A stretch of DNA of 64,000 bases, from the NCBI GenBank assembly GCA_965261475.1, contig OZ253454.1:1-64000 (forward strand), in the 5' to 3' direction. The notes under the pieces are model-generated. The model was given only the letters and a program-made list of their open reading frames with translations. It made no database searches and was not told where the DNA came from. This document shows positions 1 to 51,088 of the stretch, piece by piece. Origin of the DNA: G965261475 sp965261475 [NCBI: bacterium] (GTDB lineage: Bacteria; SAR324; XYD2-FULL-50-16). The position numbers and the translations under genes are program-made. Within the stretch, counting starts at the first letter, position 1. Each line of letters begins with the position of its first letter.

Positions 1-3000
1 GCACGCGGCAGGATTATAGACAATGATGCCCAGCCAACTATTGACTTTGAGCAAGACTATCTCAGTGCTACAGAAGATGCTAGTCTTAATTATAAACTAC
101 AAATAAGCAAAGTAAGCGCTACAAATGTGAGCTTTAATTGGTATGTGCAACATAGCTCAACTAGCGCTGAGGATTTTACGGGAGCTCTATTCGGCACACA
201 GCTAATTAGAGCAGGGGATACTAGCACAACTATTATTATTGAGACTAGCGATGATAGCGCTTATGAGACAGATGAGAACTTTAGCCTAATTATTACCAAT
301 GTCACAGGAGCTACCCCGAGTAGCCTAACAGCAAGCGGCAGGATTATAGACAATGATGCTCAACCAAGTATTGCCTTGTTGAGCTTTGAGCAAGACTATC
401 TCAGTGCTACAGAAGGTACTAGTCTTAATTATAAACTACAAATAAGCAAAGCAAGCGCTACAGACGTCGCTTTTGATTGGTCTATACACCATATCTTAAC
501 TAGCACTAGTGATTTTACAGGTGCTCTATTCGGCACACAGCTAATTAGAGCAGGGGATACTAGCACAACTATTATTATTGAGACTAGCGATGATAGTATT
601 TATGAGATAGATGAGAACTTTAGCCTCAATATTACCAATGTCACAGGAGCTGCCCCGAGTAGCCTAACAGCAAGCGGCAGCATTATAGACAATGATGCTC
701 AACCAAGTATTGACTTTGAGCAAGTAGATAGCGCTGTAACAGAAGGTACTAGTCTTAATTATAAACTACAAATAAGCAAAGCAAGCGCTACAAATGTGAG
801 CTTTGATTGGTATGTGCAACATAGCTCAACTAGCGCTGAGGATTTTACGGGAGCTCTATTCGGCACACAGCTAATTAGAGCAGGGGATACTAGCACAACT
901 ATTATTATTGAGACTAGCGATGATAGCGCTTATGAGACAGATGAGAACTTTAGCCTAATTATTACCAATGTCACAGGAGCTACCCCGAGTAGCCTAACAG
1001 CAAGCGGCAGGATTATAGACAATGATGCTCAACCAAGTATTGCCTTGTTGAGCTTTGAGCAAGACTATCTCAGTGCTACAGAAGGTACTAGTCTTAATTA
1101 TAAACTACAAATAAGCAAAGCAAGCGCTACAGACGTCGCTTTTGATTGGTCTATACACCATATCTTAACTAGCACTAGTGATTTTACAGGTGCTCTATTC
1201 GGCACACAGCTAATTAGAGCAGGGGATACTAGTACAACTATTAGCATTGATACCAGTGATGATAATATTTACGAGAGCAATGAGGATTTTAGCCTCAATA
1301 TTACCAATGTCACAGGAGCTGCCCCGAGTAGCCTAACAGCACGCGGCAGCATTATAGACAATGATGCTCAACCAAGTATTGACTTTGAGCAAGTAGATAG
1401 CGCTGTAACAGAAGGTACTAGTCTTAATTATAAACTACAAATAAGCAAAGCAAGCGCTACAGACGTCGCTTTTGATTGGTCTATACACCATATCTTAACT
1501 AGCACTAGTGATTTTACAGGTGCTCTATTCGGCACACAGCTAATTAGAGCAGGGGATACTAGCACGACTATTATTATTGAGACTAGCGATGATAGTATTT
1601 ATGAGATAGATGAGAACTTTAGCCTCAATATTACCAATGTCACAGGAGCTACCCCGAGTAGCCTAACAGCAAGCGGCAGCATTATAGACAATGATGCCCA
1701 GCCAAGTATTGACTTTGAGCAAGACTATCTCAGTGCTACAGAAGATGCTAGTCTTAATTATAAACTACAAATAAGCAAAGCAAGTGCTACAGACGTCGCT
1801 TTTGATTGGTCTATACACCATATCTTAACTAGCACTAGTGATTTTACAGGTGCTCTATTCGGCACACAGCTAATTAGAGCAGGGGATACTAGCACGACTA
1901 TTATTATTGAGACTAGCGATGATAGTATTTATGAGATAGATGAGAACTTTAGCCTCAATATTACCAATGTCACAGGAGCTACCCCGAGTAGCCTAACAGC
2001 AAGCGGCAGCATTATAGACAATGATGCTCAACCAAGTATTGACTTTGAGCAAGTAGATAGCGCTGTAACAGAAGGTACTAGTCTTAATTATAAACTACAA
2101 ATAAGCAAAGTAAGTGCTACAAATGTGAGCTTTGATTGGTCTATACACCATATCTTAACTAGCACTAGTGATTTTACGGGTGCTCTATTCGGCACACAGC
2201 TAATTAGAGCAGGGGATACTAGCACGACTATTAGTATTGATACCAGCGATGATAGTGCTTATGAGGGTGATGAGAGCTTTAGCCTAATTATTACCAATGT
2301 CACAGGAGCTACCCCGAGTAGCCTAACAGCAAGCGGCAGCATTATAGACAATGATGCCCAGCCAAGTATTGACTTTGAGCAAGACTATCTCAGTGCTACA
2401 GAAGATGCTAGTCTTAATTATAAACTACAAATAAGCAAAGTAAGTGCTACAAATGTGAGCTTTGATTGGTCTATACACCATATCTTAACTAGCACTAGTG
2501 ATTTTACGGGTGCTCTATTCGGCACACAGCTAATTAGAGCAGGGGATACTAGCACGACTATTAGTATTGATACCAGCGATGATAGTGCTTATGAGGGTGA
2601 TGAGAGCTTTAGCCTAATTATTACCAATGTCACAGGAGCTACCCCGAGTAGCCTAACAGCAAGCGGCAGCATTATAGACAATGATGCCCAGCCAAGTATT
2701 GACTTTGAGCAAGACTATCTCAGTGCTACAGAAGATGCTAGTCTTAATTATAAACTACAAATAAGCAAAGTAAGTGCTACAAATGTGAGCTTTGATTGGT
2801 CTATACACCATATCTTAACTAGCACTAGTGATTTTACGGGTGCTCTATTCGGCACACAGCTAATTAGAGCAGGGGATACTAGCACGACTATTAGTATTGA
2901 TACCAGCGATGATAGTGCTTATGAGGGTGATGAGAGCTTTAGCCTAATTATTACCAATGTCACAGGAGCTACCCCGAGTAGCCTAACAGCAAGCGGCAGC

Positions 3001-6000
3001 ATTATAGACAATGATGCCCAGCCAAGTATTGACTTTGAGCAAGACTATCTCAGTGCTACAGAAGATGCTAGTCTTAATTATAAACTACAAATAAGCAAAG
3101 TAAGCGCTACAGACGTCGCTTTTGATTGGTCTATACACCATATCTTAACTAGCACTAGTGATTTTACAGGTGCTCTATTCGGCACACAGCTAATTAGAGC
3201 AGGGGATACTAGCACGACTATTATTATTGATACCAGCGATGATAGCGATTATGAGATAGATGAGAACTTTAGCCTAATTATTACCAATGTCACAGGAGCT
3301 ACCCCGAGTAGCCTAACAGCAAGCGGCAGCATTATAGACAATGATGCCCAGCCAAGTATTGACTTTGAGCAAGACTATCTCAGTGCTACAGAAGATGCTA
3401 GTCTTAATTATAGACTACAAATAAGCAAAGTAAGTGCTACAAATGTGAGCTTTGATTGGTCTATACACCATATCTTAACTAGCACTAGTGATTTTACGGG
3501 TGCTCTATTCGGCACACAGCTAATTAGAGCAGGGGATACTAGCACGACTATTAGTATTGATACCAGCGATGATAGTGCTTATGAGGGTGATGAGAGCTTT
3601 AGCCTAATTATTACCAATGTCACAGGAGCTACCCCGAGTAGCCTAACAGCAAGCGGCAGCATTATAGACAATGATGCCCAGCCAAGTATTGACTTTGAGC
3701 AAGACTATCTCAGTGCTACAGAAGATGCTAGTCTTAATTATAAACTACAAATAAGCAAAGCAAGCGCTGTAAATGTTAGCTTTGATTGGTCTATACACCA
3801 TATCTTAACTAGCACTAGTGATTTTACAGGTGCTCTATTCGGCACACAGCTAATTAGAGCAGGGGATACTAGTACAACTATTAGCATTGATACCAGTGAT
3901 GATAATATTTATGAGATAGATGAGAACTTTAGCCTCAATATTACCAATGTCACAGGAGCTACCCCGAGTAGCCTAACAGCAAGCGGCAGCATTATAGACA
4001 ATGATGCCCAGCCAAGTATTGACTTTGAGCAAGACTATCTCAGTGCTACAGAAGATGCTAGTCTTAATTATAAACTACAAATAAGCAAAGTAAGCGCTAC
4101 AGACGTCGCTTTTGATTGGTCTATACACCATATCTTAACTAGCACTAGTGATTTTACAGGTGCTCTATTCGGCACACAGCTAATTAGAGCAGGGGATACT
4201 AGCACGACTATTAGTATTGATACCAGCGATGATAGTGCTTATGAGATAGATGAGAACTTTAGCCTAATTATTACCAATGTCACAGGAGCTACCCCGAGTA
4301 GCCTAACAGCAAGCGGCAGCATTATAGACAATGATGCCCAGCCAACTATTGACTTTGAGCAAGACTATCTTAGTGCTACAGAAGATGCTAGTCTTAATTA
4401 TAAACTACAAATAAGCAAAGCAAGCGCTACAGACGTCGCTTTTGATTGGTCTATACACCATATCTTAACTAGCACTAGTGATTTTACAGGTGCTCTATTC
4501 GGCACACAGCTAATTAGAGCAGGGGATACTAGCACGACTATTAGTATTGATACCAGCGATGATAGTGCTTATGAGATAGATGAGAACTTTAGCCTAATTA
4601 TTACCAATGTCACAGGAGCTACCCCGAGTAGCCTAACAGCAAGCGGCAGCATTATAGACAATGATGCCCAGCCAACTATTGACTTTGAGCAAGACTATCT
4701 TAGTGCTACAGAAGATGCTAGTCTTAATTATAAACTACAAATAAGCAAAGTAAGTGCTACAAATGTGAGCTTTGATTGGTCTATACACCATATCTTAACT
4801 AGCACTAGTGATTTTACGGGTGCTCTATTCGGCACACAGCTAATTAGAGCAGGGGATACTAGCACGACTATTAGTATTGATACCAGCGATGATAGTGCTT
4901 ATGAGGGTGATGAGAGCTTTAGCCTAATTATTACCAATGTCACAGGAGCTACCCCGAGTAGCCTAACAGCAAGCGGCAGCATTATAGACAATGATGCCCA
5001 GCCAAGTATTGACTTTGAGCAAGACTATCTCAGTGCTACAGAAGATGCTAGTCTTAATTATAAACTACAAATAAGCAAAGTAAGCGCTACAGACGTCGCT
5101 TTTGATTGGTCTATACACCATATCTTAACTAGCACTAGTGATTTTACAGGTGCTCTATTCGGCACACAGCTAATTAGAGCAGGGGATACTAGCACGACTA
5201 TTATTATTGATACCAGCGATGATAGCGATTATGAGATAGATGAGAACTTTAGCCTAATTATTACCAATGTCACAGGAGCTACCCCGAGTAGCCTAACAGC
5301 AAGCGGCAGCATTATAGACAATGATGCCCAGCCAAGTATTGACTTTGAGCAAGACTATCTCAGTGCTACAGAAGATGCTAGTCTTAATTATAGACTACAA
5401 ATAAGCAAAGTAAGTGCTACAAATGTGAGCTTTGATTGGTCTATACACCATATCTTAACTAGCACTAGTGATTTTACGGGTGCTCTATTCGGCACACAGC
5501 TAATTAGAGCAGGGGATACTAGCACGACTATTAGTATTGATACCAGCGATGATAGTGCTTATGAGGGTGATGAGAGCTTTAGCCTAATTATTACCAATGT
5601 CACAGGAGCTACCCCGAGTAGCCTAACAGCAAGCGGCAGCATTATAGACAATGATGCCCAGCCAAGTATTGACTTTGAGCAAGTAGATAGCGCTGTAACA
5701 GAAGGTACTAGTCTTAATTATAAACTACAAATAAGCAAAGCAAGCGCTACAGACGTCGCTTTTGATTGGTCTATACACCATATCTTAACTAGCACTAGTG
5801 ATTTTACGAGTGCTCTATTCGGCACACAGCTAATTAGAGCAGGGGATACTAGCACAACTATTAGTATTGATACTAGCGATGATAGTATTTATGAGATAGA
5901 TGAGAACTTTAGCCTCAATATTACCAATGTCACAGGAGCTACCCCGAGTAGCCTAACAGCAAGCGGCAGCATTATAGACAATGATGCCCAGCCAAGTATT

Positions 6001-9000
6001 GACTTTGAGCAAGACTATCTCAGTGCTACAGAAGATGCTAGTCTTAATTATAAACTACAAATAAGCAAAGCAAGCGCTACAGACGTCGCTTTTGATTGGT
6101 CTATACACCATATCTTAACTAGCACTAGTGATTTTACAGGTGCTCTATTCGGCACGCAGCTAATTAGAGCAGGGGATACTAGCACGACTATTAGTATTGA
6201 TACCAGCGATGATAATATTTACGAGGGCAATGAGGATTTTAGCCTCAATATTATTAATGTTACGGGAGCTGCTCCTAGTGCTCTAGTAGCAGATGGCAGG
6301 ATTATAGACAATGACCCTCAACCAACCATTGACTTTGAGCAAGACTATAGTAGCGTAACAGAAGGTGGTAGTTTGAGCTATACTTTGCGCTTAACTAACA
6401 CTAGTACTACAGATATTAGCTTTGATTGGTCTGTGCAACATAGCTCAACTAGCACTAGTGATTTTACGGGTGCTCTATTCGGCACACAGCTAATTAGAGC
6501 AGGGGATACTAGCACGACTATTATTATTGAGACTAGCGATGATAGTGCTTATGAGATAGATGAGAACTTTAGCCTAATTATTACCAATGTCACAGGAGCT
6601 GCCTCGAGTAGCCTAACAGCAAGCGGCAGCATTATAGACAATGATGCTCAACCAAGTATTGCCTTGTTGAGCTTTGAGCAAGACTATCTCAGTGCTACAG
6701 AAGATGCTAGTCTTAATTATAGACTACAAATAAGCAAAGTAAGCGCTACAGACGTCGCTTTTGATTGGTCTATACACCATATCTTAACTAGCACTAGTGA
6801 TTTTACGAGTGCTCTATTCGGCACACAGCTAATTAGAGCAGGGGATACTAGCACGACTATTATTATTGAGACTAGCGATGATAGTATTTATGAGATAGAT
6901 GAGAACTTTAGCCTCAATATTACCAATGTCACAGGAGCTACCCCGAGTAGCCTAACAGCAAGCGGCAGCATTATAGACAATGATGCCCAGCCAAGTATTG
7001 ACTTTGAGCAAGACTATCTCAGTGCTACAGAAGATGCTAGTCTTAATTATAAACTACAAATAAGCAAAGTAAGTGCTACAGACGTCGCTTTTGATTGGTC
7101 TATACACCATATCTTAACTAGCACTAGTGATTTTACGGGTGCTCTATTCGGCACACAGCTAATTAGAGCAGGGGATACTAGCACGACTATTAGTATTGAT
7201 ACCAGCGATGATAGTGCTTATGAGGGTGATGAGAGCTTTAGCCTAATTATTACCAATGTCACAGGAGCTACCCCGAGTAGCCTAACAGCAAGCGGCAGCA
7301 TTATAGACAATGATGCCCAGCCAAGTATTGACTTTGAGCAAGACTATCTCAGTGCTACAGAAGATGCTAGTCTTAATTATAAACTACAAATAAGCAAAGC
7401 AAGTGCTACAGACGTCGCTTTTGATTGGTCTATACACCATATCTTAACTAGCACTAGTGATTTTACAGGTGCTCTATTCGGCACACAGCTAATTAGAGCA
7501 GGGGATACTAGCACGACTATTAGTATTGATACCAGCGATGATAGTGCTTATGAGATAGATGAGAACTTTAGCCTAATTATTACCAATGTCACAGGAGCTA
7601 CCCCGAGTAGCCTAACAGCAAGCGGCAGCATTATAGACAATGATGCCCAGCCAACTATTGACTTTGAGCAAGACTATCTTAGTGCTACAGAAGATGCTAG
7701 TCTTAATTATAAACTACAAATAAGCAAAGTAAGCGCTACAGACGTCGCTTTTGATTGGTCTATACACCATATCTTAACTAGCACTAGTGATTTTACAGGT
7801 GCTCTATTCGGCACACAGCTAATTAGAGCAGGGGATACTAGCACGACTATTAGTATTGATACCAGCGATGATAGTGCTTATGAGATAGATGAGAACTTTA
7901 GCCTAATTATTACCAATGTCACAGGAGCTATCCCGAGTAGCCTAACAGCAAGCGGCAGGATTATAGACAATGATGCCCAGCCAAGTATTGACTTTGAGCA
8001 AGACTATCTCAGTGCTACAGAAGATGCTAGTCTTAATTATAAACTACAAATAAGCAAAGCAAGCGCTGTAAATGTTAGCTTTGATTGGTCTATACACCAT
8101 ATCTTAACTAGCACTAGTGATTTTACAGGTGCTCTATTCGGCACGCAGCTAATTAGAGCAGGGGATACTAGCACGACTATTAGTATTGATACCAGCGATG
8201 ATAATATTTACGAGGGCAATGAGGATTTTAGCCTCAATATTATTAATGTTACGGGAGCTGCTCCTAGTGCTCTAGTAGCAGATGGCAGGATTATAGACAA
8301 TGACCCTCAACCAACCATTGACTTTGAGCAAGACTATAGTAGCGTAACAGAAGGTGGTAGTTTGAGCTATACTTTGCGCTTAACTAACACTAGTACTACA
8401 GATATTAGCTTTGATTGGTCTGTGCAACATAGCTCAACTAGCACTAGTGATTTTACGGGTGCTCTATTCGGCACACAGCTAATTAGAGCAGGGGATACTA
8501 GCACGACTATTATTATTGAGACTAGCGATGATAGTGCTTATGAGATAGATGAGAACTTTAGCCTAATTATTACCAATGTCACAGGAGCTGCCTCGAGTAG
8601 CCTAACAGCAAGCGGCAGCATTATAGACAATGATGCTCAACCAAGTATTGCCTTGTTGAGCTTTGAGCAAGACTATAGCATTACAGCAGAGGGCACGAGT
8701 CTCGCCTATAGATTACAAATAAGCAAAGTAAGTGCTACAGACGTCGCTTTTGATTGGTCTGTGCAACATAGCTCAACTAGCACTAGTGATTTTACGGAAG
8801 CTCTAGCAGGCTCACAGAGAATTGCGGTAGGGAGTACTACCGTAACTATTAGCATTGATACCAGTGATGATAATATTTACGAGGGTGATGAGGATTTTAT
8901 CCTTAATATTACCAATGTTACGGGAGCGACCCCGAGTAGTCTAACGGCACGCGGCAGGATTGTAGATAATGACGCTCAACTAGCACTGAGCTTTGAGCAA

Positions 9001-12576: not shown

Positions 12577-12671
12577 CAGATGGCAGGATTATAGACAATG
12601 ACCCTCAACCAACCATTGACTTTGAGCAAGTAGCACGCAGTGCGCTAGAGGGAGCTAACCTCGTTTATACT

Positions 12672-20309: not shown

Positions 20310-20336
20310 TTTATTAAAAAAATATCAGAGTATAAT
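20310..20336 (+). promoter_or_regulatory. Promoter-like element upstream of the 20420 lipoprotein gene
   Basis: TTTATT begins at the first base after the preceding stop codon and TATAAT lies at 20331-20336. An A7 tract lies in the 15-bp spacer. The spacer is shorter than the usual 17, so this copy may be weak. A second shared block, TTGTATTTTACTTGATTTA, follows at ~20351. Confidence 0.5.
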
Positions 20337-20376
20337 TCTTTTTTTAAGACTTGTATTTTACTTGATTTAGGTATAA

Positions 20377-33985: not shown

Positions 33986-34014
33986 TTTACTTGAAAAAAA
34001 TAGCAGACTATAAT
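33986..34014 (+). promoter_or_regulatory. Promoter-like element upstream of the 34103 lipoprotein gene
   Basis: TTTACT (33986-33991) starts right after the preceding TAG. A 17-bp spacer containing A7 follows, then TATAAT (34009-34014). This is a near-consensus sigma-70 arrangement. The shared block TTGTATTTTACTTGATTTA follows at ~34034. Confidence 0.65.
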
Positions 34015-36118: not shown

Positions 36119-36147
36119 TTTATTTAAAAAAAATAGCATAATATAAA
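36119..36147 (+). promoter_or_regulatory. Promoter-like element upstream of the 36233 lipoprotein gene
   Basis: TTTATT (36119-36124), a 17-bp spacer with A8, then TATAAA (36142-36147). It begins at the first base after the preceding TAA. The TTGTATTTTACTTG block seen at most other junctions is missing here. Confidence 0.6.
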
Positions 36148-38611: not shown

Positions 38612-38640
38612 TTTATTTAAAAAAAATAGCAAAATATAAA
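38612..38640 (+). promoter_or_regulatory. Promoter-like element upstream of the 38728 lipoprotein gene
   Basis: TTTATT (38612-38617), a 17-bp spacer with A8, then TATAAA (38635-38640), directly after the preceding TAA. A shortened form of the shared leader block (ACTTGTACTTGATTT) follows at 38659. Confidence 0.6.
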
Positions 38641-41700: not shown

Positions 41701-44700
41701 GAGGGTGATGAGATTTTTAGCCTTAATGTTACCAATGTTACGGGAGCTGTCCCTGATGCCCTAGTTGCAAGTGGCAGCATTATAGATACTGACCCTCAAC
41801 CAGCAATTTCGTTTGAGCGAGTAGCTAGCGCTGTTACGGAGGGCACTAACTTTAGCTATACTTTACGGCTAACTCACACTAGCACTACAGATGTTACCTT
41901 TGATTGGTCCGTACAGCACAGCTCTACTAGTGTGAATGATTTTACGGGAGCCCTAGCAGGCGTACTGATGATTAGAGCAGGAAGCACTACTGCAGATATT
42001 ACTATTTATACTAGTGATGATAGTATTTATGAGGGCAACGAGATTTTTAGCCTTAATGTTACCAATGTTACGGGAGCTGTCCCTGATGCTCTAGTTGCAA
42101 GTGGCAGTATTATAGACAATGACGCTCAACCAGCAATTTCGTTTGAGCGAGCAGCTAGCGCTGTTACGGAGGGCACGCGCCTCACCTATAGTTTGCAGTT
42201 AGATAAAGCCAGCGCTGTAGATGTCAGTTTTGATTGGTCCGTACAGCACAGCTCTACTAGTGTGAATGATTTTACAGGCACTACTTTTGGAGCTAAGACA
42301 ATATTTGCTGGAGATACCACTGTCACTGTTGAGCTACAGATTAATGACGATCGTAGACCAGAGCAAGCTGAAACCTTTGTCTTGAGTATTACCAATATTA
42401 CAGGAGCCACCCCTGATAGTTTATCAAGACTTATCGCTATTTTAGCAAATGATCTAGACTCAACCGTAGACTACAACGGCAATGGACTCATAGATATTAC
42501 CACGAAGGAGCAATTACATAATATTCGCTATAATTTAGCAGGTACAAGCTACAAAACTAGTACTAGTGGTGCAGGTAAGACTTGTGGAGGCGGTGATTGT
42601 CGTGGCTATGAGCTCTTAGCTAATATTGCTTTAAGGACAAATTGGCAACCCATAGGTAGCGTCAGTAATCCTTTTACTAGCGTCTTACAAGGTAATGGGT
42701 ATAGCATTGCAAATCTTGCTATTAGTGGTAGTGATTATCTTGGCTTATTCGCTGCTTTGTCTGGAGCTACGATTGATAATTTGATAGTAGAAGTAGCCTC
42801 CATTATTGGCAATGCTAATGTAGGCACTCTAGCAGGTAGGGCAGAACAGAGCACTATTAGTAGGGTACAAATTAGAGCAGTAGATGTTAACAGCAAACTT
42901 CAAGCAACAGGAGCAAGAGTAGGTGGTATGCTAGGAGAAATAATAGATGTAACTATTACAAATGTAACTAGTGATTTAGATGTAGTAGGAGGTAACAACG
43001 AGAATGCAGGTAATGTAGGAGGAATTGTTGGCTATGTATCAAGTAGTGATATTAGCTATGCTTATAGCAGTGGCAGTGTTTTTGCTAGTGGTGGAACTGA
43101 TAATGTAGGTGGTTTAGTAGGAGAATTGACTAATTCTACAATTAGCTACAGCAGTAGCAGTAGCAGTGTGAGTAGCAGAGGTACTCGTAACTACGCTTAT
43201 GGTGGTTTGGTAGGGTATATGAACACCAACTCTGATATTCACTACAGCAGTGCTAGTGGCAGTGTTACTAGTAGCGGCGATAGAAATGCTAATCACGGTG
43301 GTTTGGTGGGGCGGCAGAGTGCTAGCTCTGATATTAGTTATAGCAGTGCTAGTGGCAGTGTTAGTAGTAGTGGTGATAGAAACTATTATTACGGCGGTTT
43401 GGTTGGAAGAATTGATAGTAATTCTACAATTAGTGATAGTAGTACCAGCGCTAGTGTTACTAGCAACGGATACAATAATTCTGTTTACGGCGGTTTGGTA
43501 GGACATATGAATAATTCTACAATTAGCTACAGCAGTGCTAGTGCTAGTGTTAGTAGCACAGGTGATAATAGTAATAAGTACGGCGGTTTGGCGGGGGAGG
43601 TACACGGGGCTTCCAAAATTAGCAACAGCAGTGCCAGTGGTAGTGTTAGTAGTAGTGGAGATAACAGTGAGCATTACGGTGGTTTAGTAGGAGAATTGAC
43701 TAATTCTACAATTAGCTATAGCAGTGCCAGGGGCAGTGTTATTAGTAGTGGTGATGACAACCGTGATTACGGCAGTTTGGTGGGACATATGAGCACTGGC
43801 TCTGATCTTAGCTACAGCAGTGCTAGTGGCAGCGTTACTAGTAACGGTGATTATAATTATTATTACGGCGGTTTGGTAGGAGAGGTGGAGAGTAATTCTA
43901 CAATTAGCTACAGCAGTGCTAGTAGCAACGTTACTAGTAACGGTGATAACAACCGTGATTACGGTGGTTTAGTGGGACATATGAGCACCAGTTCTGATCT
44001 TAGTTACAGCAGTGCTAGCGGCAGCGTTAGCAGTAACGGTGATAGCAACTGGGATTACGGTGGTTTGGTGGGGAGGAGTATCAATTCTGATATTGGCGAT
44101 AGCAGTGCTAGTAACAGTGTTATTAGTAGTGGTGATGACAACCGTGATTACGGTGGTTTAGTGGGACATATGAGCACTGGCTCTGATCTTAGCTACAGCA
44201 GTGCTAGTGGCAGCGTTACTAGTAGTGGTGTTGACAATCGGGATTACGGCGGTTTGGTGGGGAGGAGTATCAACTCTGATATTGGTGACAGCAGTGCTAG
44301 TGGTAGCGTTAGCAGTAACGGAGATTCTAATTGGGCTTACGGCGGTTTGGTAGGGGAGGTGAGCACTGGATCTGATCTTAGCTACAGCAGTGCTAGTGGC
44401 AGCGTTACTAGCAGTGGTGATTACAATCGGAATTACGGCGGTTTGGTAGGGGAGGTGAGTGTCAGCTCTAATTTTAGCTACAGCAGTGCTAGCGGCAGCG
44501 TTAGCAGTAACGGAGATTTTAATTTGGCTTACGGCGGTTTGGTAGGCAAAATAAGGAGTAATTCTACAATTAGTCACAGTAATACTAGTGGTAGCGTTAG
44601 CAGTAACGGAGATTCTAATTGGAATTACGGCGGTTTGGTAGGGGAGGTGAGCACTAGTTCTGATCTTAGCTACAGCAGTGCTAGCGGCAGCGTTACTAGT

Positions 44701-46026
44701 AGCGGTGTTAACAATCGGGCTTACGGCGGTTTGGTGGGGATGAGTATCAACTCTGATATTGGTGATAGCAGTGCCAGTGGTAGTATTAGTAGCAGTGGAA
44801 ATACTAATAGTCGTTACGGCGGTTTGGTAGGGGAGATGAATAATAATTCTACAATTAGCTACAGCAGTGCTAGTGGTAGCCTTACTAGTGAAGGTGATAA
44901 AAATTGGGCTTACGGCGGTTTAGTGGGGAAGAGCAGCAACTCTAATGTTAGCTACAGCAGTGCTAGTGGTAGCCTTACTAGTAACGGTGTTCACAATTCT
45001 AATTACGGTGGTTTGGCAGGAAGAATAGCAAGTAATTCTACAATTAGCTACAGCAGTGCTAGCGTCAATATCAGCAGCAGTGGTGTTAGCAGTGATCGTT
45101 ACGGTGGTTTGGTAGGATCTGTGAAGACAGGTTCTACAATTAACTACAGTAGTGCTAGTGGTAGTGTTGTTAGTAACAGATACGACAATGATAGTTATGG
45201 TGGCTTGGTAGGTCAGTCTAGTGGAGAAGTCCAGCATAGCTGGTCTAGTAGCTCTGTATTTGCAAATAGTGCGGCAGGTTTGGTGGGTCATAACTCAGGA
45301 GATTTAAATTTTAGTTATGCTCTAGGCGTTGCGTCTTATGGATTGGTTAATACGAATACAGGTAGCATCACTAATAGTTATTGGAATAGTGAGACTAGCG
45401 GAGCACTAGAAGCAGCGACAGTAGATGCTATAAGTTATACAACAAATATTGCCTCTAGTGATACAGCTAGCATGCTTACTTCTACTGGCTTTGCTAACGC
45501 TAGGATTTTTAAAGGTTTTGCAACTGCTACCGATGAGTTTGGCAGAAATATTTGGAGTTTTGCAGATGGTAGGTATCCTATAATTACACAGCTAGGAGTA
45601 GACTCCCAAGCGGGCGCTCTTGCCTATGGCTTACTGCGACTTGCTCACCCTGCGCTTACTAGTGGCTTAAATAGTTTTTTAGGAAGCACTTTTAATCACG
45701 AAGCTATTACACTTGATGCTATTAATTATAATGCTAATGAGCCTCTAGCTATTTTGGATATCAATTTACTACAGAGCAATAGTGCTACTTGTAGCGCTGG
45801 TAGTATAGGTAGCGTAATAACTACGACAGGTGCTAACCAAGCAACAGTAACGCTGAGTATCACTGCAGCAACTAACAATTTACAGGAGCGTGTTGTTTAT
45901 ACAGATTGTAATATAGCTTTTGATGGTGCAGCTACTATCTCAGCAGGTGATAGGCTACAACTAGCTGCGATAATTACCAAAGGCTCAGCTATCCTTACCA
46001 AAAACTTCGTTATAAATTTTCAGTAG
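38728..46026 (+). CDS. Giant Calx-beta/GLUG lipoprotein, one cassette with ~25 GLUG units (2,432 aa)
   Basis: A complete open frame. The signal peptide ends FSFFVFAC with the lipidation Cys at 20 and Ser at +2. Eleven Calx-beta units follow (~38815-42455) with their own consensus (FERAASAVTEGT, FDWSVQHSSTSVNDFTGALAGV, TADITIYTSDDSIYEGNEIFSLNVTNV). One unit has a 12-bp duplication giving NVTNVVTNV. A VDYNGNGLIDITTKEQL header and GGDCRGYELL segment lead into the longest GLUG array of the window, about 25 units (~43010-45290). The HSWSSSSVFA and SYWNSETSGAL segments, a YPIIT segment and the terminal-type C-terminal module ending NFQ complete it. Part of the GLUG array (43097 onward) is nearly identical to the first gene's second cassette 26.6 kb away. 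Calx-beta acidic residues and the header loop suggest calcium dependence. Confidence 0.93.
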   Translation: MFNFYKTFVLLFFSFFVFACSNNGITSNTKTTISFKQMSSAITEGASLTYSLQLNKASVVDVSFDWSVQHSSTSVNDFTGALAGVQMIRAGSTTADITIYTSDDSIYEGDESFSVNITNIRGVSSISLSAGGSIIDNESQPAISFERAARSALENTSLVYRLRLTHTSTTDVTFGWLVQHSSTSVNDFTGALAGVQMIRAGSTTADITIYTSDDSIYEGNEIFILNITNVTGAVPDALVASGSIIDNDPQPAISFERAASAALEGTNFSYTLQLTYTSTTDVAFDWSVQHSSTSVNDFTGALAGVRLIRAGSTTADITIYTSDDSIYEGNEIFSLNVTNVTGAVPDALVASGSIIDNDPQPAISFERLASAVTEGTRLTYSLQLNKASAVDVSFDWSVQHSSTSVNDFTGALAGVQMIRAGSTTADITIYTSDDSIYEGNEIFSLNVTNVTGAVPDALVASGSIIDNDTQPAISFERAASAALEGTNFSYTLRLTHTSTTDVIFGWSVQHSSTSVNDFTGALAGVLMIRAGSTTADITIYTSDDSIYEGDEIFILNVTNVVTNVTGAVPDALVASGSIIDNDPQPAISFERAASAVTEGMRLTYSLQLNKASAVDVSFDWSVQHSSTSVNDFTGALAGVQMIRAGSTTADITIYTSDDSIYEGNEIFSLNVTNVTGAVPDALVASGSIIDNDPQPAISFERLASAVTEGMRLTYSLQLNKASAVNVSFDWSVQHSSTSVNDFTGALAGVLMIRAGSTTADITIYTSDDSIYEGDEIFSLNVTNVTGAVPDALVASGSIIDNDTQPAISFERVASAVTEGTNFSYTLRLTHTSTTDVTFGWSVQHSSTSVNDFTGALAGVQMIRAGSTTADITIYTSDDSIYEGDEIFSLNVTNVTGAVPDALVASGSIIDNDTQPAISFERVASAVTEGTNFSYTLRLTHTSTTDVTFGWSVQHSSTSVNDFTGALAGVLMIRAGSTTADITIYTSDDSIYEGDEIFSLNVTNVTGAVPDALVASGSIIDTDPQPAISFERVASAVTEGTNFSYTLRLTHTSTTDVTFDWSVQHSSTSVNDFTGALAGVLMIRAGSTTADITIYTSDDSIYEGNEIFSLNVTNVTGAVPDALVASGSIIDNDAQPAISFERAASAVTEGTRLTYSLQLDKASAVDVSFDWSVQHSSTSVNDFTGTTFGAKTIFAGDTTVTVELQINDDRRPEQAETFVLSITNITGATPDSLSRLIAILANDLDSTVDYNGNGLIDITTKEQLHNIRYNLAGTSYKTSTSGAGKTCGGGDCRGYELLANIALRTNWQPIGSVSNPFTSVLQGNGYSIANLAISGSDYLGLFAALSGATIDNLIVEVASIIGNANVGTLAGRAEQSTISRVQIRAVDVNSKLQATGARVGGMLGEIIDVTITNVTSDLDVVGGNNENAGNVGGIVGYVSSSDISYAYSSGSVFASGGTDNVGGLVGELTNSTISYSSSSSSVSSRGTRNYAYGGLVGYMNTNSDIHYSSASGSVTSSGDRNANHGGLVGRQSASSDISYSSASGSVSSSGDRNYYYGGLVGRIDSNSTISDSSTSASVTSNGYNNSVYGGLVGHMNNSTISYSSASASVSSTGDNSNKYGGLAGEVHGASKISNSSASGSVSSSGDNSEHYGGLVGELTNSTISYSSARGSVISSGDDNRDYGSLVGHMSTGSDLSYSSASGSVTSNGDYNYYYGGLVGEVESNSTISYSSASSNVTSNGDNNRDYGGLVGHMSTSSDLSYSSASGSVSSNGDSNWDYGGLVGRSINSDIGDSSASNSVISSGDDNRDYGGLVGHMSTGSDLSYSSASGSVTSSGVDNRDYGGLVGRSINSDIGDSSASGSVSSNGDSNWAYGGLVGEVSTGSDLSYSSASGSVTSSGDYNRNYGGLVGEVSVSSNFSYSSASGSVSSNGDFNLAYGGLVGKIRSNSTISHSNTSGSVSSNGDSNWNYGGLVGEVSTSSDLSYSSASGSVTSSGVNNRAYGGLVGMSINSDIGDSSASGSISSSGNTNSRYGGLVGEMNNNSTISYSSASGSLTSEGDKNWAYGGLVGKSSNSNVSYSSASGSLTSNGVHNSNYGGLAGRIASNSTISYSSASVNISSSGVSSDRYGGLVGSVKTGSTINYSSASGSVVSNRYDNDSYGGLVGQSSGEVQHSWSSSSVFANSAAGLVGHNSGDLNFSYALGVASYGLVNTNTGSITNSYWNSETSGALEAATVDAISYTTNIASSDTASMLTSTGFANARIFKGFATATDEFGRNIWSFADGRYPIITQLGVDSQAGALAYGLLRLAHPALTSGLNSFLGSTFNHEAITLDAINYNANEPLAILDINLLQSNSATCSAGSIGSVITTTGANQATVTLSITAATNNLQERVVYTDCNIAFDGAATISAGDRLQLAAIITKGSAILTKNFVINFQ
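38815..42455 (+). repeat. Tandem array of 11 Calx-beta-type units
   Basis: Eleven units of about 330 bp. Each contains FDWSVQHSSTSVNDFTGALA or a near variant and TIYTSDDSIYEG. Identity between units is high but the consensus is specific to this gene. Confidence 0.93.
40396..40419 (+). repeat. Tandem 12-bp duplication GTTACCAATGTT
   Basis: Two exact adjacent copies of GTTACCAATGTT within one Calx-beta unit insert four residues (NVTNVVTNV). Sister units have one copy, so this is a recent in-frame micro-duplication. Confidence 0.92.
43010..45290 (+). repeat. GLUG repeat array of ~25 units in the 38728 gene
   Basis: About 25 units with period 25-32 residues. A higher-order pattern is visible in which spacers of the HMSTGSDLSYSS, RSINSDIGDSS and EVSTGSDLSYSS types alternate between about 43780 and 44760. 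This indicates growth by duplicating two- or three-unit blocks. Confidence 0.88.
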
Positions 46027-46056
46027 TTTATTTTAAAAAAATAACAAAAATATAAA
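46027..46056 (+). promoter_or_regulatory. Promoter-like element upstream of the 46147 lipoprotein gene
   Basis: TTTATT (46027-46032), an 18-bp spacer with A7 and a second A5 run, then TATAAA (46051-46056), directly after the preceding TAG. A related leader block, ACTTGTATTTTGTTTTATTT, follows at 46074. Confidence 0.55.
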
Positions 46057-46146: not shown

Positions 46147-46776
46147 ATGTCTAACAGTTGTATTTTTTATAAAACTTTTATTTTACTATTTTTTAGCTTC
46201 TTTATCTTTGCTTGTAGCAAGGAGACACCTATAGCTACTCAATCAACTATTTCGTTTGAGAAAGGAGATATCACTGTTATAGAAGGCACTAGTTTCACCT
46301 ATACTTTGCGGCTAACTAACACTAGCAGCACAGATGTTACCTTTGATTGGTCTGTGCAACATAGCTCAACTAGCGCTGAGGATTTTACAGGTAACCTAGA
46401 AGGTGCAAAGAGTATTACAGCAGGCAATATCACCACAGATATTAGCATTTACACTAGTGATGATACTATTAGCGAGTCAACTGAGAGCTTTAGCTTAAAT
46501 ATTACCAATATCACAGGAGCCACACCTAGTAACTTATCGGCAAGAGGTAGTATTGAAGATAATGATAGTATAGCTACAGTTGTAGATAGCAACGCTAATG
46601 GACTCATAGATCTTGTAACACAGGAGCAATTGCAGAATATGCGCTATAATTTAGCAGGTACTAGCTACAAAACTAGTACTAGTGATGTAGGTGTAGCGTG
46701 CGAAGGAGGCGTTTGTCGTGGCTACGAGCTCTTAGCTAATATTGCTTTGAGTACAAATTGGCAACCCATAAGGTAG
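46147..46776 (+). CDS. Calx-beta/GLUG lipoprotein, N-terminal fragment (frameshifted)
   Basis: The signal peptide ends FSFFIFAC with the lipidation Cys at 23 and Ser at +2. One Calx-beta unit follows (FEKGDITVIEGTSF ... DFTGNLEGAKSI ... SDDTISESTESFSL). The header VVDSNANGLIDLVTQEQL and the EGGVCRGYELL Cys-pair segment come next. The frame then stops at NWQPIR. The same gene's second cassette reads NWQPIGSTSDSF (~49170), and a one-base insertion of A at 46770/46771 accounts for the difference. The frame beginning around 46772 continues the protein to 51088. As sequenced the product would be a 209-residue lipoprotein fragment. The undamaged gene would encode about 1,647 residues. Confidence 0.85.
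   Translation: MSNSCIFYKTFILLFFSFFIFACSKETPIATQSTISFEKGDITVIEGTSFTYTLRLTNTSSTDVTFDWSVQHSSTSAEDFTGNLEGAKSITAGNITTDISIYTSDDTISESTESFSLNITNITGATPSNLSARGSIEDNDSIATVVDSNANGLIDLVTQEQLQNMRYNLAGTSYKTSTSDVGVACEGGVCRGYELLANIALSTNWQPIR
46770..46776 (+). other. Single-base insertion frameshift in the last family gene
   Basis: This copy reads CAACCCATAAGGTAGTACAA. The second cassette at ~49178 reads CAACCCATAGGTAGTACAA. The extra A makes TAG stop 46774-46776 in frame. Protein homology resumes immediately in the next frame (GSTSDSFRSRLQGNGYS). Either a real mutation or a sequence error. Confidence 0.87.
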
Positions 46777-46897
46777 TACAAGCGATTCTTTTAGAAGCAG
46801 ATTACAGGGTAATGGTTATAGCATCACCAACCTTGATATTAACGGTGAGGATTACCTTGGCTTATTCGCCGCTTTAGCTGGAGCTACGATTGATAAT

Positions 46898-49800
46898 TTG
46901 ATAGTAGAAGTCGCTTCTATTGCTGGTGATAGCTATGTAGGCGCTCTAGCAGGTAATGCAAAAAATAGCCACTTTGCTAATGTAGAAATTAGAGCTGCAA
47001 GCACTAGTAGTAAACTCTCAGCAACAGGAATAAATATAGGAGGTATGCTAGGAGAAATCATAGATACAACTATTATCAATGCAACTAGTGACTTGAGTAT
47101 AGTAGTAGCAGGTAATAATGTGGGTGAGTTTATATTCAATGGTGTAGGAGGAATTGTTGGCTCTGTGCTTAGCAGTAGCATTAGCTATGCTTATAGCAGT
47201 GGTAGTGTTTTTGCGAGCGGCGGTGTTAGTATTGTGGGTGGTTTGGTAGGGTATATAAGCACTAACTCGGATCTTAGTTACAGCAGTACTAGTGGCAGTG
47301 TGAGTAGCAGAGGTACTCGCAGTAATTATTACGGTGGTTTGGTAGGCTTGATATTTGATGCTACAATTAGTAACAGCAGTGCTAGCGGCAGTGTGAGTAG
47401 TAGTGAAGCTAGCAGTGATTATTACGGCGGTTTGGTAGGCTTGATATTTGATGCTACAATTAGCTACAGCAGTGCTAGTGGTAGCGTGACTAGCAAAGGT
47501 AATAATAATGATTTTTACGGTGGTTTAGCTGGAGGAGTAGATCGTAATTCTCAAGTTAGCTACAGCAGTGCTAGTGGTAGCGTGACTAGCAAAGGTAATA
47601 ATAATGGTTTTTACGGTGGTTTAGCTGGAGGAGTAGATCGTAATTCTGAAGTTAGCTACGGCAGTGCTAGTGGTAGCGTGACTAGCAAAGGTAATAATAA
47701 TAATTTTTACGGTGGTTTGGTAGGATCGTTGGGAGAAGCTACAATTGACTACAGCAGTGCTAGTGGTAGTGTGACTAGCAGTGGAGTTAATAATGATGCT
47801 TATGGTGGTTTGGTAGGTGTGTCTCACGGAGACATCAGGCATAGCTGGTCTAGTAGCTCTGTATTTGCCAGCAACCCAGCAGGTTTGGTGGATAATAATG
47901 GAGGAAATTTAGAATTTAGTTATGCCCTAGGTGTTGTCTTGCAAAATACTGCTCCAGTGACTAGTGGTTTTGGATTAGTTGCTACGAATATAGCTACAGC
48001 GAGCATAACTAATAGCTATTGGAATAGTGAGACTAGTGGAGCACTAGTAGCAGCAGATGGTACATATAATACTATAAACATTGATTATAGCGATACAGCT
48101 AGTATGCTAGCTTCCACTGGCTCTACTAGCGCTAGGATTTTTAAAGGTTTTGCAGCCGCTACCGCTGAGGATCATAGCAATATTTGGAGCTTTGCAAATG
48201 GTAATTACCCTGTAATTACAGAGCTAGGAGTGGACAAACAAGCTGTGGCACTTGCCTACGGCTTACTACGACTTGCTAGTCCTAATGTAGGCGTCAGTAC
48301 TCTAGATAGCTTTTTAGGAAGTACCTTAAATCACGAAGCTATTGCACTTGATGCGAATAGTTACAATGCTAATGAGCCCCTAGCTATTTTAGATGTCAAT
48401 TTACTACAGAGCAATAGCGCTACTTGTGCTGCTGGTAGTGGAGATATCATAATGACTACGACAGGTGCTAATGGTACTAGGATTGCCCTCCAAAAAATAG
48501 CAGGCAGTACTGAGGTTACAAAACAAGCAGGTAATTCTTGTGAAATTATTTTATTAAACCAACCGAGTGGTACTTTGCAACTAGCTGCTGTAATTAGTAA
48601 AGGAGCTGCTAGTCTTACCAAAAAATTTGACATAACCCTAAAAAATACTCAACCAACAATTTCTTTGCAACCTACAACTCTAAGCACTAGAGAAGGTGGT
48701 ACTCTGGTATTTACACTAGAGTTAAACCATAGGACTAACACAGATGTGACTTTTGCTTGGTCTGTGGAGCATAATACAGCTATTGCTAGTGATTTTATAG
48801 GAGTTACTTCTAGTGGGCTAGAGACAATATCTGCTGGAGATACCATTGCTACTATTAGCATTTACACTAGTGATGATACTATTAGTGAGCTAACTGAGAG
48901 CTTTAGCTTAAGTATTACCAATATCACAGGAGCCACACCTAGTAACTTATCGGCAAGAGGTAGCATTCTAGATAATGATAGTATAGCTACAGTTGTAGAT
49001 AGCAATGCTAATGGACTCATAGATCTTGTAACACAGGAGCAATTGCAGAATATGCGCTATAATTTAGCAGGTACTAGCTACAAAACTAGTGCCAGTGATG
49101 CAGGTGCAGCGTGCGAAGGAGGCGTTTGTCGTGGCTACGAGCTCTTAGCTAATATTGCTTTGAGTACAAATTGGCAACCCATAGGTAGTACAAGCGATTC
49201 TTTTAGAAGCAGATTGCAGGGCAATGGTTATAGCATCACCAACCTTGATATTAACGGTGAGAATTACCTTGGCTTATTCGCCGCTTTAGCTGGAGCTACG
49301 ATTGATAACTTGATAGTAGAAGTCGCTTCTATTGCTGGTGATAGTTATGTAGGCGCTCTAGCAGGTAGTGCAAAAAATAGCCACTTTACTAATGTAGAAA
49401 TTAGAGCTGCAAGCACTAGTAGTAAACTCTCAGCAACAGGAATAAATATAGGGGGTATGCTAGGAGCAATCATAGATACAACTATTATCAATGCAACTAG
49501 TGACTTGAGTATAGTAGTAGCAGGTAGTAATGTGGGTGAGACTATATTCAATAGTGTAGGAGGAATTGTTGGATCTGTGCTTAGCAGTAGCATTAGCTAT
49601 GCTTATAGCAGCAGCAGTGTTTTTGCAAGCGATGGCATTGCTGTTGTGGGTGGTTTGGTGGGTGCTATATTTGAAAATTCTAAAATTAGCTACAGCAGTG
49701 CCAGTGGTAGTGTGAGTAGTAGAGGCAATGGCAATCACGTTTACGGTGGTTTGGTAGGGTATATGAGCACTAACTCTGATCTTAGCTACAGCAGTGCCAG

Positions 49801-51088
49801 TGGCAGTGTTACTAGTAGCGGTAATAGCAATGCTAATTACGGTGGTTTGGTGGGGTGGGTGGTTAGCTCTGATATTAGCCACAGCAGTGCTAGCGGTAGT
49901 GTTACTAGTAATGGTAATAATGTTCAGTACGGCGGTTTGGTAGGAGGTATGTCTGATACTAAAATTAGCTACAGCAGTGCTAGTGGCAGTGTTAGCAGTA
50001 GCGGAGTTAGCAGTGATGCTTATGGTGGTTTGGTAGGGTTGATATTTGATGCTACAATTAGCTACAGCAGTGCTAGCGGCAGTGTGACTAGCAGTGGAGC
50101 TAATAGTGATCAGTACGGTGGTTTGGTGGGGGTTATATTTGATGCTACAATTAGCTACAGCAGTGCTAGCGGCAGTGTGACTAGCAGTGGAGCTAATAGT
50201 GATAAGTACGGTGGTTTGGTAGGTGAGTCTTACGGAGACATCAGGCATAGTTGGTCTAGCAGCTCTGTATTTGCCAGCAACCCAGCGGGTTTGGTGGGTA
50301 ATAATGGAGGAAATTTAGGTTTTAGTTATGCCCTAGGTGTTGTCTTGCAAAATACTGCTCCGGTGACTAGTGGTTTTGGGTTGATAGCAGAAGATACAAA
50401 TTATTACGGGTTCAACATAAGAACTGTAGCTCATAGCTATTGGAATAGTGAGACTAGTGGAGCACTAGCAGCAGGAACAGGCGGCACTGTCACAAATATT
50501 GCCTCTAGTGATACAGCTAGTATGCTAGCTTCCACTGGCTCTGCTACCTCTAGGATTTTTAAAGGTTTTGCAGCTGCTACCGATGAGCTTGGCAACAATA
50601 TTTGGACTTTTGCAAGCGGTAATTACCCTGTAGTTACAGAGCTAGGAGTGGACAAACAAGCGGTGGCACTTGCCTACGGCTTACTACGACTTGCCAACCC
50701 TAATGTAGGTGGCAGTACTCTAGATAGCTTTTTAGGAAGCACCTTAAATCACGAAGCTATTGCACTTGATGCTGATGATTACAGCATTAGTAATAACCTA
50801 GCTATTTTAGATGTTAACCTCTTGGCAAGCGATAATGGCTGTAGTACAGAAAATAATGGCAATAGTTTAGTTAGTAACAGTGCTAATTCTACAAAAGTTA
50901 AACTTACTGTCAATCTAGCAAAAACTAGTGATAATTTACGGGAGCGCGTTGTTTATACAGGATCAGATTGTAGTATAGATTTTAATAGTGCAGCTGTATT
51001 TCAAGCAGGTGATAGGCTACAACTAGCTGCGACAATTACCAAAGGCTCAGCTAGCCTTACCAAAAACTTCGTTATAAACTTTCGCTAA
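46898..51088 (+). CDS. GLUG/Calx-beta lipoprotein, C-terminal part (two cassettes; continuation after frameshift)
   Basis: The open frame continues the protein of 46147-46776 from about 46772. The start at 46898 is internal to a conserved segment and not credible as native. It holds the rest of cassette one: ~8 GLUG units (~47140-47880) with SYWNSETSGAL, a YPVIT segment, and an internal-type C-terminal module with LQKIAGSTEV...NSCEII. One Calx-beta unit follows at ~48650-48980. A second header VVDSNANGLIDLVTQEQL (~48999), its GLUG array of ~9 units (~49550-50300) and the terminal-type module ending INFR complete it. The two cassettes are near duplicates of each other in their header regions (46580-47230 versus 48990-49640). 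This is the last family member, and the conserved promoter-like element found at the other junctions is absent after its stop. Confidence 0.87.
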   Translation: MIVEVASIAGDSYVGALAGNAKNSHFANVEIRAASTSSKLSATGINIGGMLGEIIDTTIINATSDLSIVVAGNNVGEFIFNGVGGIVGSVLSSSISYAYSSGSVFASGGVSIVGGLVGYISTNSDLSYSSTSGSVSSRGTRSNYYGGLVGLIFDATISNSSASGSVSSSEASSDYYGGLVGLIFDATISYSSASGSVTSKGNNNDFYGGLAGGVDRNSQVSYSSASGSVTSKGNNNGFYGGLAGGVDRNSEVSYGSASGSVTSKGNNNNFYGGLVGSLGEATIDYSSASGSVTSSGVNNDAYGGLVGVSHGDIRHSWSSSSVFASNPAGLVDNNGGNLEFSYALGVVLQNTAPVTSGFGLVATNIATASITNSYWNSETSGALVAADGTYNTINIDYSDTASMLASTGSTSARIFKGFAAATAEDHSNIWSFANGNYPVITELGVDKQAVALAYGLLRLASPNVGVSTLDSFLGSTLNHEAIALDANSYNANEPLAILDVNLLQSNSATCAAGSGDIIMTTTGANGTRIALQKIAGSTEVTKQAGNSCEIILLNQPSGTLQLAAVISKGAASLTKKFDITLKNTQPTISLQPTTLSTREGGTLVFTLELNHRTNTDVTFAWSVEHNTAIASDFIGVTSSGLETISAGDTIATISIYTSDDTISELTESFSLSITNITGATPSNLSARGSILDNDSIATVVDSNANGLIDLVTQEQLQNMRYNLAGTSYKTSASDAGAACEGGVCRGYELLANIALSTNWQPIGSTSDSFRSRLQGNGYSITNLDINGENYLGLFAALAGATIDNLIVEVASIAGDSYVGALAGSAKNSHFTNVEIRAASTSSKLSATGINIGGMLGAIIDTTIINATSDLSIVVAGSNVGETIFNSVGGIVGSVLSSSISYAYSSSSVFASDGIAVVGGLVGAIFENSKISYSSASGSVSSRGNGNHVYGGLVGYMSTNSDLSYSSASGSVTSSGNSNANYGGLVGWVVSSDISHSSASGSVTSNGNNVQYGGLVGGMSDTKISYSSASGSVSSSGVSSDAYGGLVGLIFDATISYSSASGSVTSSGANSDQYGGLVGVIFDATISYSSASGSVTSSGANSDKYGGLVGESYGDIRHSWSSSSVFASNPAGLVGNNGGNLGFSYALGVVLQNTAPVTSGFGLIAEDTNYYGFNIRTVAHSYWNSETSGALAAGTGGTVTNIASSDTASMLASTGSATSRIFKGFAAATDELGNNIWTFASGNYPVVTELGVDKQAVALAYGLLRLANPNVGGSTLDSFLGSTLNHEAIALDADDYSISNNLAILDVNLLASDNGCSTENNGNSLVSNSANSTKVKLTVNLAKTSDNLRERVVYTGSDCSIDFNSAAVFQAGDRLQLAATITKGSASLTKNFVINFR
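47140..50300 (+). repeat. Two GLUG repeat arrays of the 46147 gene
   Basis: Arrays at about 47140-47880 (~8 units) and 49550-50300 (~9 units). The spacer LIFDATIS.SSASGSV recurs in both, so the arrays exchange or share recent ancestry. Confidence 0.85.

What the first reader, a model, noticed from the sequence alone, without database searches (positions are those of the whole stretch)
1..51088. A 51-kb tandem family of giant modular lipoproteins that may be a size- and phase-variable surface system
Seen: six adjacent co-oriented genes share one parts list. It comprises a lipoprotein signal, n Calx-beta units, a calcium-loop header, n GLUG units and a terminal module. Stalk copy number ranges widely (about 41, 16, 0, 2, 11 and 2 Calx-beta units), and GLUG number per array runs from 5 to ~25. 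Lipobox +2 residues are Gly, Gly, Asn, Ser and Ser, never Asp, which in E. coli would favour the outer membrane. Inference: repeat-number change alters stalk length while conserved modules display it, as in variable lipoprotein systems such as Mycoplasma Vlp, but with entirely different domains. I know of no described system with this architecture.
Basis: partly seen in the sequence, partly recalled or inferred. Interest (0 to 1): 0.8.

Follow-up and report, generated by a model that had tools for sequence, protein, structure and literature searches.

The report
Giant multi-headed repeat lipoprotein gene family
A bacterium of unknown lineage carries six neighbouring genes for very large, probably surface-anchored proteins, most with a calcium-binding stalk and each with one or more spiral-shaped heads, and the longest gene shows clear marks of recent growth by copying blocks of its own repeats.

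Summary
The observation largely holds, with corrections. Window 1-51088 carries six co-oriented paralogous genes: a lipoprotein signal (visible in 5; gene 1 is cut by the window edge), 0-43 Calx-beta units, and 12 head cassettes (header + GLUG beta-helix + terminal module), 3, 4, 1, 1, 1 and 2 per gene. In 9 of 11 comparison classes dN/dS is 0.24-0.47. Size change has within-sequence support: a 982-bp exact repeat six units apart and a six-unit periodicity in gene 1 (0 of 2000 shuffles). No strain comparison was possible. Phase variation is unproven: no long simple repeats, but all five spacers hold an A7-A8 tract in a promoter-like layout, recalling Mycoplasma Vlp. Relatives exist: tandem GLUG lipoproteins in a Leptospirales MAG's phylum, with TSP3, FN3 or no recognised stalk, and multi-cassette proteins in a Cellvibrionales MAG's phylum. 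Neither Calx-beta beside GLUG nor the terminal module was found in the 30 GLUG-bearing genomes searched. Best reading: a lipid-anchored, fibrillar-adhesin-like family whose stalk length evolves by recombination; a new variant of a known kind.

The parts
1..12576 (+). Gene 1, first open frame: 38 tandem Calx-beta units of about 330 bp; 5' end and any lipoprotein signal lie outside the window
2078..8676 (+). Recently duplicated blocks in the gene 1 stalk: exact repeats of 982 bp (2722 and 4702, 1980 bp apart), 697 bp (2078 and 2408) and 597 bp (6091 and 8080)
   Evidence: six-unit lag signal
12567..20309 (+). Gene 1, second open frame after a one-base frame break near 12570: 5 Calx-beta units and three head cassettes (13596-15479, 15828-18134, 18483-20306)
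20420..33985 (+). Gene C, 4521 aa: lipoprotein signal, 13 + 3 Calx-beta units, four head cassettes (24914-26872, 27215-29383, 29726-31660, 32003-33982)
34103..36118 (+). Gene D, 671 aa: lipoprotein signal, no Calx-beta unit, one head (34172-36115) with a degenerate calcium loop
36233..38611 (+). Gene E, 792 aa: lipoprotein signal, 2 Calx-beta units, one head (36956-38608)
38728..46026 (+). Gene F, 2432 aa: lipoprotein signal, 11 Calx-beta units, one head with about 25 GLUG units (42457-46023)
46147..46776 (+). Gene 6, first open frame: lipoprotein signal, 1 Calx-beta unit and part of a header, then a one-base frame break near 46770
46772..51088 (+). Gene 6, second open frame: rest of the first head, 1 Calx-beta unit, second head (48986-51085)
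20310..20336 (+). Promoter-like layout with A7 tract in the spacer
33986..34014 (+). Promoter-like layout with A7 tract in the spacer
36119..36147 (+). Promoter-like layout with A8 tract in the spacer
38612..38640 (+). Promoter-like layout with A8 tract in the spacer
46027..46056 (+). Promoter-like layout with A7 tract in the spacer

Best explanation
The locus encodes a family of lipid-anchored, fibrillar-adhesin-like envelope proteins. Each is exported by Sec, lipidated at its N-terminal cysteine, in five of six genes extended by a calcium-binding Calx-beta stalk, and carries one to four beta-helix heads built from GLUG turns, each capped by a terminal domain that was found nowhere else in the genomes searched. 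Stalk length and, more slowly, head number change by recombination between the tandem repeats (unequal crossing-over of multi-unit blocks), and paralogues exchange segments by conversion. Shown: gene family, module order, signs of purifying selection, duplicated blocks, patchy identity between paralogues. Inferred: lipidation and surface location, calcium binding, ligand binding by the heads, the recombination route, and that size change continues in present populations.
For: Module anatomy and counts. Five conserved lipoprotein N-termini. Stalk: Pfam Calx-beta and the AlphaFold2 model of E (mean pLDDT 57.6; ten-residue means 58-84 over residues 31-220), whose best fold matches are the NCX1 and CALX calcium-binding tandem domains, E 2e-10. 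Head: the profile of 8 of the 12 heads matches pneumococcal IgA1 protease chains (E about 5e-14); the model of D has a beta-helix with ten-residue means 71-98 over residues 111-410; IgA1 protease entries rank 1, 3 and 12 in its fold search, but weakly (E 0.04, 0.11, 0.54; no match at E <= 0.001). dN/dS of pooled unit pairs 0.24-0.47 in 9 of 11 classes. Recombination: 982-bp exact repeat six units apart, 697-bp one unit apart, 597-bp about six units apart; lag-6 identity 0.926 against 0.895 in order shuffles of the first 27 units, 0 of 2000; D-E identity runs between 0.81 and 0.99 in blocks within the head, and an 84% block of 1770 nt is shared by gene 1 and F. Tandem lipoproteins with GLUG repeats recur in relatives.
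Against: No known adhesive domain matched. No ligand, expression or localisation data; no signal-peptide program was run, the lipobox was read by eye. Two of six genes are frame-broken as sequenced, which may mean decay or sequencing error. The 8 near-identical GLUG pairs gave dN/dS 1.16. The C-terminal part of the heads was poorly predicted. No second strain was found, so present-day variation is untested.
Confidence: 0.62

Rival explanations
1. A true size- and phase-variable surface system in the Vlp manner: each gene has its own promoter with an A tract between the two hexamers, slippage switches genes on and off, and repeat change alters length.
For: The only five A runs of 7 or more on the + strand of 1-51088 lie one in each of the five spacers, 6-8 nt after the stop and 97-105 nt before the next start. 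A layout TTTA(T/C)T, 15-18 nt holding the tract, TATAA(A/T) occurs five times in 64 kb, all there. Spacer lengths differ (15, 17, 17, 17, 18). Vlp phase switching by an A tract in the promoter of all vlp genes is described in PMC10502178 (passages).
Against: Tracts are only 7-8 long; a run of A7 or more in 115 nt of this composition is expected in 5% of spacers. T7 runs also occur, six in the region, three of them in two of the spacers. The layout was defined after seeing the sequences, and the five spacers are paralogous, so not independent; the general promoter scan of 33900-46300 found no excess (28 against 30.8). The two frame breaks are not in long homopolymers. In the relatives' tandem arrays upstream runs showed no position kept along an array, though a neighbouring pair in G129 and two genes in G170 share runs (by eye).
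Confidence: 0.17
2. The lipoproteins stay on the periplasmic side and serve as structural or scaffold proteins of the envelope.
For: A lipobox alone does not fix the leaflet or side; surface export was not testable here.
Against: A stalk of 41 beta-sandwich domains would be far longer than a periplasm is wide (inference from recalled domain size). Proteins with related GLUG repeats carry other export ends, two of them with filamentous-haemagglutinin-like N-termini (named by eye).
Confidence: 0.15
3. A decaying, self-expanding repeat locus with little function left.
For: Two of six genes are frame-broken; repeats have expanded recently.
Against: dN/dS well below 1 in stalk, header and terminal modules. 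After the breaks the frames stay open for more than 2500 and 1390 codons, so the breaks are recent or artefacts. Four of six genes are intact.
Confidence: 0.1
4. Secreted or surface peptidases related to M26 IgA1 proteases.
For: Peptidase_M26_N and ZmpA profile matches, IgA1 protease structures.
Against: The matches cover only the GLUG beta-helix region; no peptidase catalytic-domain match in the Pfam scans of the eight open frames.
Confidence: 0.02

Closest known systems
Fibrillar adhesins (FA-like proteins; PMC8286594, PMC9210967, passages read)
   Same: Very long protein, repeated stalk domains, terminal adhesive region, usually a surface anchor; clusters predicted as beta-solenoids are among the candidates of the 2022 paper (heading and one sentence seen)
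   Different: Lipid anchor at the N-terminus; the words Calx and GLUG do not occur in the main text of either paper; heads repeated along one chain; six genes in tandem
Tandem lipoproteins with GLUG repeats in genomes G129, G039 and G170 (phylum of the Leptospirales MAG G001)
   Same: Lipobox, GLUG beta-helix repeats (in G129 also the same header); paralogues side by side on one strand
   Different: TSP3 (2 of 3 G129 proteins scanned), FN3 (the one G170 protein scanned) or no recognised stalk (2 of 2 G039 proteins scanned); other C-terminal ends
Multi-cassette header/GLUG proteins of G435, G647 and G744 (order of G435, in the phylum sample of a Cellvibrionales MAG)
   Same: Four, three and two header-GLUG matches in one open frame; in G435, the one read, joined by calcium-binding-type repeats
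   Different: In G435, TSP3-like repeats instead of Calx-beta, no lipobox, and a hydrophobic C-terminal tail (by eye)
Mycoplasma hyorhinis Vlp system (PMC10502178, passages read)
   Same: Lipoprotein gene family with repeat-number size change; A tract in the promoter region of every gene
   Different: Host with LPS genes nearby rather than a wall-less bacterium, unrelated domains, far larger proteins, A tracts of 7-8, no population data
LapA / BapP-type calcium-dependent large adhesins (PMC12153261, PMC7616799, passages read)
   Same: Calx-beta-like repeats in large adhesins
   Different: [quoted passage not shown] GLUG is not mentioned in the BapP paper; lipid anchor not described in the passages seen

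Membership tests
Fibrillar adhesin-like protein | Large length with repeated stalk domains | tested here: met
   74 Calx-beta units over five of the six genes; Pfam and Foldseek. Gene D has none
Fibrillar adhesin-like protein | Adhesive region, usually at a terminus | tested here: inconclusive
   Beta-helix heads on the C-terminal side, but no known adhesive domain matched
Fibrillar adhesin-like protein | Surface anchor | tested here: inconclusive
   Signal plus lipobox cysteine in 5 of 5 visible N-termini, read by eye; surface side not testable
Vlp-type variable lipoprotein system | Family of lipoprotein genes with in-frame repeat arrays | tested here: met
Vlp-type variable lipoprotein system | Homopolymeric A tract in the promoter of every gene | tested here: inconclusive
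   A7-A8 tract in 5 of 5 visible spacers within a promoter-like layout; short, and promoter activity unknown
Vlp-type variable lipoprotein system | Observed repeat-number and on/off variation between clones | not testable with these tools
   No second isolate or close relative was found
M26 IgA1 protease | Catalytic metallopeptidase domain | tested here: not met
   Only the N-terminal GLUG region matches
Tandem GLUG lipoproteins of the Leptospirales MAG's phylum | Lipobox + GLUG repeats, paralogues in tandem | tested here: met
   Same arrangement in G039 (15 ORFs, lipobox visible in 13), G129 (4 of 4), G170 (4 of 4); the window's own phylum is not resolved

The most novel reading that the evidence does not exclude
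A diderm, multi-headed analogue of the Vlp system: six lipid-anchored fibrous proteins whose length changes by six-unit block duplication and whose expression is switched by slippage of a promoter A tract, giving a cell surface that varies in reach and composition.
Probability: 0.15. Interest if true: 0.75.

Novelty: new variant of a known kind. Interest (0 to 1): 0.47.

Why it matters
It joins two repeat families, Calx-beta stalk and GLUG beta-helix, in lipid-anchored giants, repeats whole heads along one chain, and preserves a readable record of how such genes grow (six-unit blocks). With the relatives found here it points to a recurring kind of tandem lipoprotein locus, not described in the papers our searches listed, in which the head repeat is kept while the calcium-binding or Ig-like stalk is exchanged. 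If strain data showed changing lengths, it would be a test case for length variation as a surface strategy outside Mollicutes.

Tried and rejected
Protease reading: rejected, no catalytic domain. Some family names in the Pfam scan of the first open frame (for example metallothionein, galectin, leukocidin) have no stretch passing on its own and are taken as sums over repeats. Phage or plasmid origin: no match to gene D in phages, one weak Calx-only match to gene E on a plasmid, and no confirmed relative among 56 candidate stretches in IMG/VR. Rfam at gathering threshold and tRNA scan of the window: nothing. Host lineage: the long-form IspG next door matches genomes of the Leptospirales MAG's class (best 46%, E 8e-77) and of the Balneolales MAG's phylum (45%, E 2e-73) almost equally; the PgsA/PssA-like protein and the RND pump did not resolve it. 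Among the fetched loci only IspG and the PgsA-like protein matched; those carrying IspG are under 4 kb, so this is no fair test of gene order. The host is left open. Terminal module elsewhere: 2 of 30 genomes at E <= 0.1, best 0.01, taken as noise; a weak aBig_2 match in 9 of 12 copies; none in PDB sequences. Slipped-strand switching inside the genes: the 9-bp tandem repeat at 19035 keeps the frame. Paper searches for Calx-beta with GLUG, GLUG with spirochete, GLUG with IgA1 protease: 0 papers each; GLUG motif with lipoprotein: 1, an archaeal genome paper seen in the listing only; Calx-beta domain with lipoprotein and repeat: 3, listing only. A six-term search on repeat-number change in adhesins gave 0; the last broad search held 466 papers, of which 10 were listed, none relevant by title. 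Limits: the genome scan used two short peptide patterns, and the head profile A1 was given 8 of the 12 heads.
Full report
What is there. Window 1-51088 holds six co-oriented paralogous genes. Five show a hydrophobic signal ending in a lipobox cysteine followed by Gly, Gly, Asn, Ser or Ser; the first gene is cut by the window edge. Calx-beta units number 43, 16, 0, 2, 11 and 2 per gene. The header, GLUG array and terminal module form one head, and there are 12 heads: 3, 4, 1, 1, 1 and 2 per gene, with 5-25 GLUG-like units each by motif. Within multi-head genes a single Calx-beta unit joins one head to the next. The calcium loop of the header is recognisable in 11 of 12 and degenerate in gene D. 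The Pfam score for Calx-beta is a sum over repeats; few single units pass on their own, so the fold match matters.

Frame breaks. Genes 1 and 6 are each split by a one-base length difference from paralogous copies, near 12570 and 46770, outside long homopolymers. Downstream frames stay open for more than 2500 and 1390 codons. The breaks are therefore recent or errors of the sequence; I cannot tell which. Intact paralogous copies of both places exist in the window.

Selection. Pooled Nei-Gojobori estimates: Calx-beta 0.39-0.41 (73 of 74 units), headers 0.43-0.47 (11 of 12), terminal modules 0.24-0.31 and 0.03 in a single near-identical pair (10 of 12), GLUG units 0.35-0.37, except 8 near-identical GLUG pairs at 1.16 (87 units cut out by motif). 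Pairs are not independent, so this is indicative only. It speaks for translated, constrained products.

Repeat-number change. In gene 1 the longest exact repeats are 982 bp at a distance of 1980 bp (six units), 697 bp at one unit and 597 bp at about six units. Over all 38 units of the first open frame, identity is raised at lags 1-8 (0-20 of 2000 shuffles), partly because the array has two zones: the first 27 units are alike (0.895), the last 11 less so (0.805). Within the first 27, a cut made after seeing the zones, lag 6 stands out (0.926 against 0.895, 0 of 2000), lags 2 and 8 are also raised (4 and 41 of 2000), and lags 1, 3-5 and 7 are not (158-493 of 2000); 14 lags were looked at. This is what block duplication by unequal crossing-over would leave. 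D and E differ by a gap of a few GLUG units, and their identity runs from 0.81 to 0.99 along the head; gene 1 and F share a 1770-nt block at 84%, where the other listed matches between them reach 71-77%, as expected of conversion or transfer between paralogues. All this shows change in the past of this genome, not in a present population.

Switching. The longest homopolymers in 1-51088 are A8. Yet the only five A runs of 7 or more on the + strand sit one in each spacer at nearly the same distance from the stop, within a layout TTTA(T/C)T - 15 to 18 nt - TATAA(A/T) that occurs nowhere else in the 64 kb on either strand. Position-shuffled spacers never held it in more than 3 of 5 (5000 rounds), but the pattern was drawn from these sequences and the spacers are paralogous. 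T7 runs occur too, six in the region, three of them in two spacers. The first 38 nt after the stop are more alike (0.70) than the rest of the spacer (0.48), while the preceding gene end is more alike still (0.83), so the conservation may simply trail off from the gene. The generic promoter scan of 33900-46300 shows no excess. I keep a Vlp-like switch as a rival, not as the result.

Structure. AlphaFold2 on window-only alignments (11 rows each) gave the two stalk domains of E at moderate confidence, matching NCX1/CALX tandem calcium-binding domains, and a well-predicted beta-helix for D, nearest to IgA1 protease by sequence profile and, weakly, by fold (ranks 1, 3 and 12, none at E <= 0.001). 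The C-terminal part was poorly predicted; the terminal module has a weak aBig_2 match.

Relatives. A pattern scan of one genome for each of 84,980 species gave four distant relatives of the head, in Leptospirales, Balneolales, Cellvibrionales and Cloacimonadota MAGs; matches cover header and GLUG, not the terminal module. In the Leptospirales MAG's phylum 15 of 198 genomes, that MAG included, match at E <= 1e-10. G039 has 15 ORFs with at least four GLUG pentapeptides on one strand over 48 kb, 13 with a lipobox visible in the printed start; G129 and G170 each have four in a row, with lipobox in 4 of 4. G129, in the class of that MAG, has 14 matches at E <= 1e-20; 2 of its 3 scanned proteins have TSP3 repeats before the header. 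Of 48 genomes of that class only these two starting genomes match at that level. G170's one scanned protein has FN3, and the two scanned from G039 have no recognised stalk. In the Cellvibrionales MAG's phylum 13 of 299 genomes, that MAG included, match at E <= 1e-10, and in the order of G435 4 of 197, G435 included, at E <= 1e-20; three of these have four, three and two cassettes in one open frame. Calx-beta occurs in 5 of 30 GLUG-bearing genomes, never at a listed GLUG place; but the search asked for E <= 1e-5 per match and single units of the window itself score weakly, so units of this kind could have been missed.

Meaning. The parts and their order fit a fibrillar adhesin: anchor, repeated stalk, head (definition from passages of PMC8286594 and PMC9210967). 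Calx-beta in large adhesins is known (LapA, BapP; passages of PMC12153261 and PMC7616799). New here, as far as these searches reach, are the lipid anchor with a Calx-beta stalk and GLUG heads, heads in series on such a stalk, a terminal module not found elsewhere, and the block-duplication record. I file it as a new variant of a known kind.

Noticed in passing
window 1-51088 against 52000-64000: G+C is 0.38-0.44 in the array against 0.32-0.36 in the flank, with strong positive GC skew over the GLUG arrays; may reflect repeat composition or acquisition.
   Followed up: no
window 55479-56855: One 458-aa open frame matches PgsA in its first half and PssA in its second, both below the curated cut-off: an apparent fusion of two CDP-alcohol phosphatidyltransferases.
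   Followed up: partly
window 58845-60548, - strand: Long-form IspG (567 aa) of the kind with an insert; nearest in the sampled genomes are the Leptospirales MAG's class and the Balneolales MAG's phylum at similar identity.
   Followed up: partly
window 51549-53813: Cytochrome c maturation cluster with a CcmC match and open frames that look like CcmE, CcmG and CcmH, with no CcmF-sized frame between them (names other than CcmC by eye).
   Followed up: no
window 19035-19078: A 9-bp tandem repeat (4.9 copies) inside a head of gene 1; its unit keeps the frame, so slippage would change length only.
   Followed up: no
L031-L033, G039:C1:1628502-1676363: Fifteen GLUG open frames, 13 with a visible lipobox, on one strand over 48 kb of a 2.68-Mb contig; a good subject for strain comparison.
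   Followed up: partly
L057, G435:C1:3265024-3275991: A 3656-aa protein with four header-GLUG cassettes, a long TSP3-like aspartate-rich array and a hydrophobic C-terminal tail.
   Followed up: partly
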